A stretch of DNA of 64,000 bases from Bacteroidota bacterium. GTDB lineage: Bacteria; Bacteroidota; Ignavibacteria; SZUA-365. The DNA is taken from the NCBI GenBank assembly GCA_014860565.1, contig JACZJN010000108.1:1-64000 (forward strand), read 5' to 3'. The notes under the pieces were generated by a model. That model saw nothing but the letters and a program-made list of their open reading frames with translations. It did no database searches and had not been told where the DNA came from. The stretch's first letter is position 1; every line of letters begins with the position of its first letter. A program made the position numbers and the translations under genes. Shown here piece by piece: positions 24,957 to 64,000 of the stretch.

Positions 24957-25020
24957 GTATTCTCTGCCGTATATTGGCCATTATTACGCTTGTTGAAGTA
25001 AGCCTCAATAAAATCAATGT

Positions 25021-25037
25021 TGGTATGGTATTTGCAA
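25021..25037 (+). promoter_or_regulatory. Sigma-54 promoter of hsp20
   Basis: TGGTATGGTATTTGCAA has GG at 25022-25023 and GC at 25034-25035, the exact GG-N10-GC spacing, with a TTTGCA -12 element. Predicted start is near 25047, 29 bases before the ATG, leaving room for the TAGGAG ribosome site. The core matches the second site at 62691-62707. Confidence 0.6.
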
Positions 25038-60411: not shown

Positions 60412-61203
60412 ATGGAACTCGAACTCAACGGCAAACGGGCCTTTGTGGCCGGATCCAGCGACGGCATCGGCCGCGCCATCGCCGAAGGACTCTCCGCCGA
60501 AGGCGCACACGTCATGCTTTGCGCGCGCACGGAGACGAAACTCGCTGCCCTGGCAGACACGATGCGTGCAGCCGGAGCGAAGCGTGTGGAATTCATCGCG
60601 GCGAATCTCGACGCACCGGAAGAAATCGAGCGCGTGATCGGTGAAACCCATGCGGTTTTTGGCGGAGTGGACGTGCTCGTTACGAATAACGGCGGACCCA
60701 ATCCCGGCGACTTTCTCTCGATGACGGAGGACGACTGGCTGGCCGGCTACAACCGCACGCTCATGAGCGGCATCCGTCTCATCCGCGGCTTCCTGCCCGG
60801 CATGATCGAACGTGGATTCGGACGCGTGATCAACGTGACGAGCATCTCGGTCAAGCAGCCCGTGCAGCGTCTGCTGCTGTCGAACACCTTCCGCGCGGGT
60901 GTGACCGGCATGGCCAAAACGCTCTCGGACGAGGTGTCGAAACACGGCGTCACGGTCAACAACATCGCCCCGGGCTACATCGCGACGGGACGCCAGGCGC
61001 AGCTCTTCAACGACCGCGCGGCCAAAGCCGGCGTGACCGTCGACCAGATTCGCGAGCAGCTCACCGCCAACATCCCCATGGGACGCATCGGCACGCCGGA
61101 CGAAATCGCGCACCTGGCGGTCTTTCTCGCCAGCGCGCGTTCCTCGTACATGACCGGGACAACCATCCAGGTCGACGGCGGATTGTTCCGGGGATTGATG
61201 TAG
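60412..61203 (+). CDS. Atypical SDR oxidoreductase
   Basis: The 263-residue short-chain dehydrogenase-like protein has cofactor-binding VAGSSDGIGRAIAEGL in place of TGxxxGIG, TNNGGPNPGDF for NNAG, and the C-terminal VDGGLFRG. The usual catalytic S-x12-Y-x3-K is altered: TSISVKQPVQRLLL then SNTFR, putting Ser where Tyr is expected and Arg where Lys is expected. This matches an atypical subgroup of beta-ketoacyl reductase-like SDRs. An ATG at 60367 would add 15 residues; neither start has a clear ribosome site. The response regulator starts nine bases after its stop. Confidence 0.8.
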   Translation: MELELNGKRAFVAGSSDGIGRAIAEGLSAEGAHVMLCARTETKLAALADTMRAAGAKRVEFIAANLDAPEEIERVIGETHAVFGGVDVLVTNNGGPNPGDFLSMTEDDWLAGYNRTLMSGIRLIRGFLPGMIERGFGRVINVTSISVKQPVQRLLLSNTFRAGVTGMAKTLSDEVSKHGVTVNNIAPGYIATGRQAQLFNDRAAKAGVTVDQIREQLTANIPMGRIGTPDEIAHLAVFLASARSSYMTGTTIQVDGGLFRGLM

Positions 61204-61212
61204 GAATTCAAA

Positions 61213-62577
<1,365 letters not shown>

Positions 62578-62634
62578 AGGCGGATTGCATTCTGCAACGT
62601 CCTGAGGCGTTCGATTGCAATTCGCAATCCGCCT
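62578..62634 (+). promoter_or_regulatory. Paired dyads between regulator and kinase genes (candidate enhancer or hairpin)
   Basis: TTGCA-TTC-TGCAA (62585-62597) and GATTGC-AATTC-GCAATC (62613-62629) are centred 30 bases apart, nearly three helical turns, and lie about 97 and 127 bases before the predicted sigma-54 start. The outer arms AGGCGGATTGC (62578-62588) and GCAATCCGCCT (62624-62634) also form an 11-pair stem followed by TTTC, so a terminator or attenuator role is possible too. Confidence 0.45.
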
Positions 62635-62690
62635 TTCTGCTGCCACCACTGAAATACATAGCATTCCCTCATATCCCATCTTGATCAGCT

Positions 62691-62707
62691 TCGGCATGGT
62701 AATTGCA
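62691..62707 (+). promoter_or_regulatory. Sigma-54 promoter of the histidine kinase gene
   Basis: TCGGCATGGTAATTGCA has GG at 62693-62694 and GC at 62705-62706 with exact N10 spacing, and matches the hsp20 site in most core positions (GG-C/T-ATGGTA-A/T-TTGCA). Predicted start is near 62718, so the leader would be only about 11 bases and carry the AGGAGG ribosome site at its 5' end, which is unusually tight. Confidence 0.55.
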
Positions 62708-62728
62708 TTTCCGTAAAAGGAGGCGCAC

Positions 62729-64000
62729 ATGACTTTGAGGACCCGCATACTTTTTGGATATGGAATCGCGATGACGCTCTTCACCGTTGTCCTGGTGATG
62801 GCGATACTCGCTCTTGTGCCGCTTGGAGACGCGACAGACTCCATTCTCAAGGAGAACTACCGGAGCATTTCCGCCGCCGATCAAATGCTCGCAAGTCTCC
62901 AGGAAGAAATCATCGTTTTCCTTGCGCAGGGCGAGGACGTCGCCGCGCAAATGCGCACGCTCGACGCTGCCTTTCTCTCCGCACTCTCCCATGCAACCGC
63001 GAATATCACCATCTATGGGGAATCGCCCCTGGTCTCCAAAATACGGACGCGATACGACGGCTGGCGCGCCTTCATTCTCGACCGACGCGAGGGAGCACGT
63101 GTCTTCCCGGCCGGACGAATCATTGGGGCGGATGCGCGCGACATCATTGACCGGGTGCAGGATCTGCGTAACGGCATTATTCAGCTTCGCAAACTCAACA
63201 CCGACCACATGCACGCGGCGAGCGCGGAAGCGAAGCGGCTTGCCGACCGGGCCGTACTTATCACGGTCATCCCCGGGTTTTCCGGATTGACCCTCATTCT
63301 CCTCTTCAGTCTCGTTTTATCCCGCAGGCTCGTTCATCCGATCCGCGCAATGTCCGAAGCCGCTCGTGAGATCAGTGCAGGCAAACTCGAGATCCGTCTC
63401 CCCGAGAATCCCAACGACGAACTCGGAGAACTCGCGCGTGAATTCAACAGGATGTCGGTGGAACTGCAGCGGTTTCGTGACCTGAACATCGAGGAAGTCA
63501 TTGCGGCGAGGAAGCAGAGTGATGCCGTACTCTCCAGCATCGATGACGGCATCGTCCTGATCGATACAGACATGAACGCGACGCAGGTGAATCCTGCGGC
63601 GATCCGCCTTCTCGGAGACATCGCGATTCAGCCACACCCGCTTCCCACGCTGCAGCGAATTCTCCCTGTCGCGGAACTGAACGACGCCGTCCGATCCGCG
63701 CTTGTGGATGGGATCGTCATGGAGCAGCCCGATGAGCAGCGCATCTTCCAGGTCCCGCGAAGCGATCCGAAACGATACTGTCAGTATTCCGTGGAACTGA
63801 TCCGGAATCCCGAGGACGTGCCAATCGGCGCCGTTATCGTTCTCCGTGATGTCACCCGACTGAAGGAGGTCGAGCATCTGAAGTCAGAATTCGTCATGGC
63901 TGCGTCGCACGAACTCCGCACGCCGCTCACCAGCATCGGCATGAGCATAGAACTGCTCAACGAAAGCCTCAGCGAATTTCTTACGGATCGAACGCGCGGG
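62729..64000 (+). CDS. Sensor histidine kinase, HAMP-PAS type (partial, 3' end missing)
   Basis: The visible 424 residues hold an N-terminal transmembrane helix (about 8-32), a ~140-residue helical periplasmic domain, a second helix (about 175-200), HAMP (about 199-250), a PAS-like segment (about 262-380) and the start of the HisKA domain with the phosphorylated His in MAASHELRTPLTS (H394). The layout resembles KinB. The kinase catalytic domain lies beyond the window. AAAAGGAGG precedes the ATG by five bases. It probably phosphorylates the response regulator upstream. Confidence 0.92.
   Translation, partial: MTLRTRILFGYGIAMTLFTVVLVMAILALVPLGDATDSILKENYRSISAADQMLASLQEEIIVFLAQGEDVAAQMRTLDAAFLSALSHATANITIYGESPLVSKIRTRYDGWRAFILDRREGARVFPAGRIIGADARDIIDRVQDLRNGIIQLRKLNTDHMHAASAEAKRLADRAVLITVIPGFSGLTLILLFSLVLSRRLVHPIRAMSEAAREISAGKLEIRLPENPNDELGELAREFNRMSVELQRFRDLNIEEVIAARKQSDAVLSSIDDGIVLIDTDMNATQVNPAAIRLLGDIAIQPHPLPTLQRILPVAELNDAVRSALVDGIVMEQPDEQRIFQVPRSDPKRYCQYSVELIRNPEDVPIGAVIVLRDVTRLKEVEHLKSEFVMAASHELRTPLTSIGMSIELLNESLSEFLTDRTRG

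What the first reader, a model, noticed from the sequence alone, without database searches (positions are those of the whole stretch)
62578..62731. Sigma-54 promoter with paired upstream dyads in front of the histidine kinase gene
Sequence: TCGGCATGGTAATTGCA shows exact GG-N10-GC spacing, and two dyads (TTGCA-TTC-TGCAA and GATTGC-AATTC-GCAATC) are centred 30 bases apart, about 127 and 97 bases upstream of the predicted start. Knowledge: NtrC-type regulators bind paired dyads about 80-150 bases upstream. Inference: the regulator encoded just upstream activates its own kinase gene through sigma-54, a positive feedback that could give switch-like behaviour. The predicted leader is only about 11 bases, and the outer arms also form an 11-pair hairpin, so an attenuator is the main alternative.
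Basis: partly seen in the sequence, partly recalled or inferred. Interest (0 to 1): 0.62.

Follow-up and report, generated by a model that had tools for sequence, protein, structure and literature searches.

The report
Self-wired sigma-54 potassium-uptake operon switch
A bacterial control gene sits just before a promoter carrying two copies of its likely DNA-binding site, and that promoter appears to drive its partner sensor gene together with a potassium-uptake operon; relatives across the bacterial class keep the same binding site next to the same regulator, so the site is real, although the kind of circuit is already known.

Summary
A strong sigma-54 site (GG-N10-GC, 62691-62707) and two dyads 30 bp apart lie between an intact NtrC-type regulator gene (GAFTGA) and a histidine kinase gene. 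The genome has rpoN. The dyad pair occurs once in 4.75 Mb. The strongest evidence is comparative: the same dyad (TTGCA-N3-TGCAA) stands directly downstream of AlgB-like regulator genes across Ignavibacteria (17 sites in 11 kb, none in 65 kb of control sequence). It is usually paired, and the proximal dyad is centred 70-85 bp before a sigma-54 site (72 in the window). So the dyads are most likely the regulator's operator; the hairpin is at most a weak terminator of the regulator mRNA. Past the window edge, kinase, receiver protein, two TrkA and TrkH genes run tightly on one strand, so the promoter probably drives a potassium-uptake operon. In relatives the dyads front a STAS-ExbB-ExbD-TonB operon, while sigma-54 regulators front kdp operons in a layout like the window's. 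Sigma-54 control of kdp is already published in Desulfovibrio. The sign of the feedback is not shown: Pseudomonas KinB antagonises AlgB by removing phosphate.

The parts
61213..62577 (+). NtrC/AlgB-type response regulator: receiver, AAA+ with GAFTGA, Fis-type HTH ending ATLWRKRKQYGLD
   Evidence: Pfam Response_reg, Sigma54_activat, HTH_8; sister to the AlgB-like clade of Ignavibacteria, support 88/94, long branch
62578..62634 (+). Rod-like inverted repeat starting right after the regulator stop codon; possible weak terminator (followed by TTTCTG); contains both dyads
   Evidence: no Rfam match
62583..62599 (.). Distal operator dyad GATTGC-ATTCT-GCAACG
   Evidence: class-wide consensus TTGCA-N3-TGCAA
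62613..62629 (.). Proximal operator dyad GATTGC-AATTC-GCAATC, centre 72 bp before the GG element
   Evidence: relatives 70-85 bp, one 97
62691..62707 (+). Sigma-54 promoter TCGGCATGGTAATTGCA
62718..62728 (+). Predicted 11-nt leader AGGAGGCGCAC, Shine-Dalgarno at its very 5' end
   Evidence: sequence; start inferred from -12 spacing
62729..64000 (+). Histidine kinase gene (whole gene 62729-64543 on contig G000:C181, 604 aa): HAMP, PAS, HisKA, HATPase_c; first gene of a run with receiver protein 64550-65251, trkA 65235-65708, trkA 65716-66372, trkH 66380-67858 (contig coordinates, beyond the window)

Best explanation
The gap between regulator and kinase is a sigma-54 promoter with a two-site operator. 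Phosphorylated regulator (gene 61213-62577) binds the two TTGCA-N3-TGCAA-type dyads, meets sigma-54 polymerase at 62691-62707 by DNA looping, and its AAA+ domain opens the promoter. The transcript starts near 62718 and runs through the histidine kinase, a receiver protein, two TrkA subunits and TrkH. The regulator thereby controls both its likely partner kinase and a potassium-uptake system. Shown by sequence: promoter, dyads, intact regulator, rpoN, gene order, conservation of dyad and geometry. Inferred: binding, phosphorylation by this kinase, operon transcription, potassium as signal or purpose, sign of feedback. The hairpin formed by the dyads and their flanks may in addition weakly end the regulator's own mRNA.
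For: Promoter score; rpoN single copy; GAFTGA and AAA+ domain. Dyad pair unique in the genome, and none of the 12 other strict sigma-54 sites has TTGC-N5-GCAA within 220 bp upstream. In 44 homologous loci, TTGC-N5-GCAA within 250 bp after the regulator: 17 sites at 11 loci in 11,000 bases, 0 in 65,250 control bases; with its overlapping register it tops 2304 half-site/spacing combinations. Positions not imposed by the pattern are also fixed: T at +2 in 27/27, A at -2 in 24/27. Proximal dyad centre to GG: window 72; relatives with a promoter score of at least 9: 70, 70, 70, 72, 72, 78, 78, 79, 80, 82, 85, one 97. Of 9 class-wide pattern hits picked by eye as promoter-like, 5 were next to an AlgB-like regulator. 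Trk operon content. Relatives' kdp operons have regulator, sigma-54 site 107-120 bp later, then kdp (window 114). Precedent: DVU3334, a GAFTGA regulator, controls kdpFABC in Desulfovibrio vulgaris (PMC3333781, PMC4641369).
Against: No transcript or binding data. The window regulator is a long-branch, divergent relative (best identity 45-46%). The window's dyad spacing is 30 bp; relatives have 75-78 bp. Many homologous regulators (33 of 44) show no exact dyad in the 250 bp. The predicted leader is very short. No relative with the same regulator-kinase-Trk order was found.
Confidence: 0.8

Rival explanations
1. The inverted repeat is only a transcription terminator or attenuator of the regulator mRNA, and the dyads are by-products of its stem; the kinase is expressed from read-through or another promoter.
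For: Perfect 11-bp stem beginning right after the stop codon, -27.5 kcal/mol, z -5.6; 5-bp extension of the arms beyond the dyads, not part of the operator consensus; a short T-rich tail (TTTCTG).
Against: 35-nt loop and weak T tract, not called by the terminator scan; dyads conserved in relatives as separate sites 75-78 bp apart at a near-fixed distance from sigma-54 sites; the hairpin is upstream of the predicted start, so it cannot attenuate that transcript.
Confidence: 0.1
2. The promoter and dyads are real, but another of the roughly 16 sigma-54 activators of this genome binds them, or the regulator mainly acts elsewhere and the kinase is controlled by a different protein.
For: The genome encodes about 16 strong sigma-54 activator domains.
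Against: The same dyad tracks AlgB-like regulators across families; other sigma-54 promoters of this genome carry different dyads, e.g. GCGTTCG-N5-CGAACGC; the dyad pair is unique.
Confidence: 0.07
3. Chance: a sigma-54-like match and half-site repeats without function.
For: Strict sigma-54 matches exceed the reversed control only about twofold genome-wide (13 vs 6).
Against: Joint occurrence with a unique dyad pair and class-wide conservation of dyad and distance.
Confidence: 0.03

Closest known systems
NtrC-type sigma-54 promoters with paired enhancer dyads (e.g. glnA/NtrC; from general knowledge)
   Same: Paired 17-bp dyads about 3 helical turns apart, about 100-130 bp upstream of the start; GAFTGA activator with Fis-type HTH; GG-N10-GC promoter
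   Different: Different dyad sequence (GATTGC-N5-GCAATC); operator sits at the end of the activator's own gene
KinB-AlgB two-component system (Pseudomonas aeruginosa, PMC6932827) and its Ignavibacteria homologues
   Same: HAMP-PAS kinase with NtrC-class regulator; regulator gene before kinase gene as in the algB-kinB operon; C-terminal ATLWRKRK-type HTH and operator shared with Ignavibacteria homologues
   Different: Here the kinase has its own sigma-54 promoter and leads a Trk operon; Ignavibacteria homologues have kinase then regulator and a STAS-ExbB-ExbD-TonB operon as target
DVU3334 sigma-54 regulator of kdpFABC in Desulfovibrio vulgaris (PMC3333781, PMC4641369), and kdp loci of Ignavibacteria (L112, L118-L120)
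   Same: GAFTGA response regulator adjacent to a sigma-54 promoter driving a potassium transporter, with a kinase gene in the locus
   Different: Kdp ATPase rather than Trk; in the Ignavibacteria kdp loci the dyads are TTCA-N3-TGAA 19-21 bp apart and the regulator belongs to another clade

Membership tests
Sigma-54-dependent promoter | GG at -24 and GC at -12 with 10 bp between, extended TGGCACG-N4-TTGCW | tested here: met
   TCGGCATGGTAATTGCA; second-best of the window
Sigma-54-dependent promoter | Genome encodes sigma-54 | tested here: met
   PF04552, E 1.1e-57, one copy
Sigma-54-dependent promoter | Transcript start 12 bp after GC, rpoN-dependent | not testable with these tools
   needs start mapping and an rpoN mutant
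NtrC-class response regulator | Receiver, AAA+ sigma-54 interaction domain with GAFTGA, Fis-type HTH | tested here: met
Named NCBIfam equivalogs (AtoC, NtrC, ZraR, PEP_resp_reg) | Score above curated cut-off | tested here: not met
   407 of 714, 375 of 559, 366 of 760, 358 of 503 bits
AlgB-like regulators of Ignavibacteria | Tree position with the clade | tested here: inconclusive
   sister to the 43-row clade, 88/94, end branch 1.57
AlgB-like regulators of Ignavibacteria | TTGCA-N3-TGCAA operator next to the gene | tested here: met
AlgB-like regulators of Ignavibacteria | Kinase then regulator, followed by STAS-ExbB-ExbD operon | tested here: not met
   order reversed, Trk genes follow; STAS/ExbB operon not found in this genome
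Pseudomonas AlgB | Direct sequence orthology and alginate role | not tested
   no direct comparison made
Trk potassium uptake system | TrkH channel and TrkA subunits with NAD-binding domain | tested here: met
   TrkH E 3.8e-47; TrkA_N E 8e-24 and 1e-16; TrkA_C E 4e-10
Kdp potassium system | kdpA in genome | tested here: not met
   no PF03814 match

The most novel reading that the evidence does not exclude
A KinB/AlgB-type sigma-54 module has been rewired: it kept its ancestral operator but changed its target from a STAS-ExbBD-TonB operon to a Trk potassium-uptake operon that contains its own kinase and a second receiver protein, so that potassium uptake and signalling capacity rise or fall together in one feedback loop.
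Probability: 0.4. Interest if true: 0.55.

Novelty: new variant of a known kind. Interest (0 to 1): 0.46.

Why it matters
It gives a concrete, testable operator (TTGCA-N3-TGCAA) for a regulator family spread over a whole class of mostly uncultured bacteria, and identifies two likely outputs (an ExbB/ExbD/TonB operon in most, a Trk potassium operon here). It adds Trk to the potassium systems placed next to sigma-54 response regulators, and shows an operator kept while its target and gene order changed.

Tried and rejected
Rfam at permissive threshold on 61000-63500: nothing. Sigma-70 scan: no site in the gap; Bacteroidetes-type -7 element: none. Same-genus orthologues of regulator or kinase: none found. 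TrkH search across 391 class and 396 phylum genomes: best 32-33% identity, and the two contexts looked at hold no regulator-kinase-Trk copy. Named-genome scan with TrkH: nothing. Class-wide dyad-plus-promoter pattern: most hits look like coding-sequence chance matches; only nine promoter-like ones were followed. Attenuator: rejected as the main explanation (see rivals). Literature in the open-access library: no paper found on a sigma-54 Trk operon or on AlgB-type operators in Ignavibacteria; absence there is weak evidence.

Full report
Observation. The window is G000 contig C181 1-64000. Between the regulator stop codon (62577) and the kinase ATG (62729) lie 151 bases. They hold a near-consensus sigma-54 site, TCGGCATGGTAATTGCA (62691-62707), the second-best of the 64-kb window on both strands, and two dyads, GATTGC-ATTCT-GCAACG and GATTGC-AATTC-GCAATC, 30 bp start to start. 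The homologous kdp-locus kinase in L119 starts with a similar peptide (MKLRTRIL against MTLRTRIL), so the ATG at 62729 is credible.

Chance. TTGC-N5-GCAA is expected 0.002 times in the gap. Two copies 5-35 bp apart occur only here in 4.75 Mb, control 0. None of the 12 other strict sigma-54 matches in the genome carries this dyad in the 220 bp upstream. The genome has one rpoN and about 16 strong sigma-54 activator domains.

Comparative test. Regulators most similar to this one (38-46% identity) occur throughout the class, mostly directly after a KinB-like kinase gene. Downstream of 44 such regulators, TTGC-N5-GCAA occurs 17 times at 11 loci in 11,000 bases, and never in 65,250 bases of flanking controls; with its shifted register it is the most frequent of all 4-base half-sites at spacings 0-8. 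The loci are related, so these are not independent events, but they span several families. Further examples came from named genomes (L182, L188, L224) and from a class-wide pattern (L292, L293, L295-L297). Positions outside the search pattern are fixed as well: T at +2 in 27/27, A at -2 in 24/27 (near-duplicates and the window left out). The window's distal dyad fits this; the proximal one has C at +2. Dyads are commonly paired at 75-78 bp; the proximal one is centred 70-85 bp before the GG element where a promoter scored, 72 in the window, with one outlier at 97. In several loci no promoter scored above threshold at that distance. L296 carries GATTGCATAATGCAATC, the window's own outer letters.

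Target. In most relatives with the dyads, the following operon is STAS, ExbB, ExbD, ExbD, TonB, PstS-like, TPR. That operon was not found in the window's genome (best ExbB 36%). Instead, on the same strand and nearly without gaps, come the kinase (62729-64543), a receiver protein of 233 aa (64550-65251), a TrkA-N protein (65235-65708), a TrkA-N/TrkA-C protein (65716-66372) and TrkH (66380-67858), then a TPR-CHAT gene. kdpA is absent. In class relatives with kdp (L118, L119, L120), a sigma-54 regulator gene is followed 107-120 bp after its stop by a sigma-54 site and then the kdp genes; L112 has the same kind of site after a regulator cut by the locus edge. Where read in full (L119) the kdp genes run on to a KdpD-type sensor and a kinase of the window's kind. 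Their dyads are TTCA-N3-TGAA pairs 19-21 bp apart, one copy often degenerate. A GAFTGA regulator controlling its own kdp operon is published for Desulfovibrio vulgaris DVU3334 (PMC3333781, PMC4641369).

Phylogeny. The window regulator is sister to the AlgB-like clade (88/94) on a long branch; the kdp regulators form another clade. Its same-family counterparts L122 and L128 sit inside the AlgB-like clade, so the window's copy is a divergent relative rather than a plain vertical orthologue.

Mechanism. Most likely, phosphorylated regulator binds both dyads and activates sigma-54 polymerase for the kinase-Trk run. The feedback sign is open: in Pseudomonas, KinB antagonises AlgB by dephosphorylation (PMC6932827), in which case feedback here would be negative. 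The hairpin arms extend 5 bp beyond the dyads, so a weak terminator function is possible beside the operator function; it cannot attenuate a transcript that starts at 62718.

Open points. Why the pair is 30 bp apart here and 75-78 bp in relatives is not explained. Potassium as the signal is inferred from gene content only.

Noticed in passing
25020-25036 (+): Highest-scoring sigma-54-like site of the window (TTGGTATGGTATTTGCA, 16.3), 40 bp before an Hsp20-like gene (25076) followed by dnaK (25613).
   Followed up: partly
L059 and L061 (G000:C117:17627, G000:C139:27095): Two other sigma-54 sites of this genome have similar upstream dyads (GCGTTCG-N5-CGAACGC at -110; GGCGTTCG-N5-CGAACGCC at -90), which suggests a second sigma-54 regulon with its own operator.
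   Followed up: no
L065 (G000:C210:34142) and L055 (G000:C50:29661): Two more sigma-54 sites lie just downstream of sigma-54 activator genes, the same layout as in the window.
   Followed up: partly
L114, L128, L109, L111, L139, L143 and others: KinB-AlgB-like pair followed by operator and a conserved STAS-ExbB-ExbD-ExbD-TonB-PstS-TPR operon across Ignavibacteria; no description of its function was found.
   Followed up: partly
G000:C181:67902-71249: Large TPR-CHAT gene directly after trkH on the same strand; CHAT domains are often caspase-like proteases.
   Followed up: no
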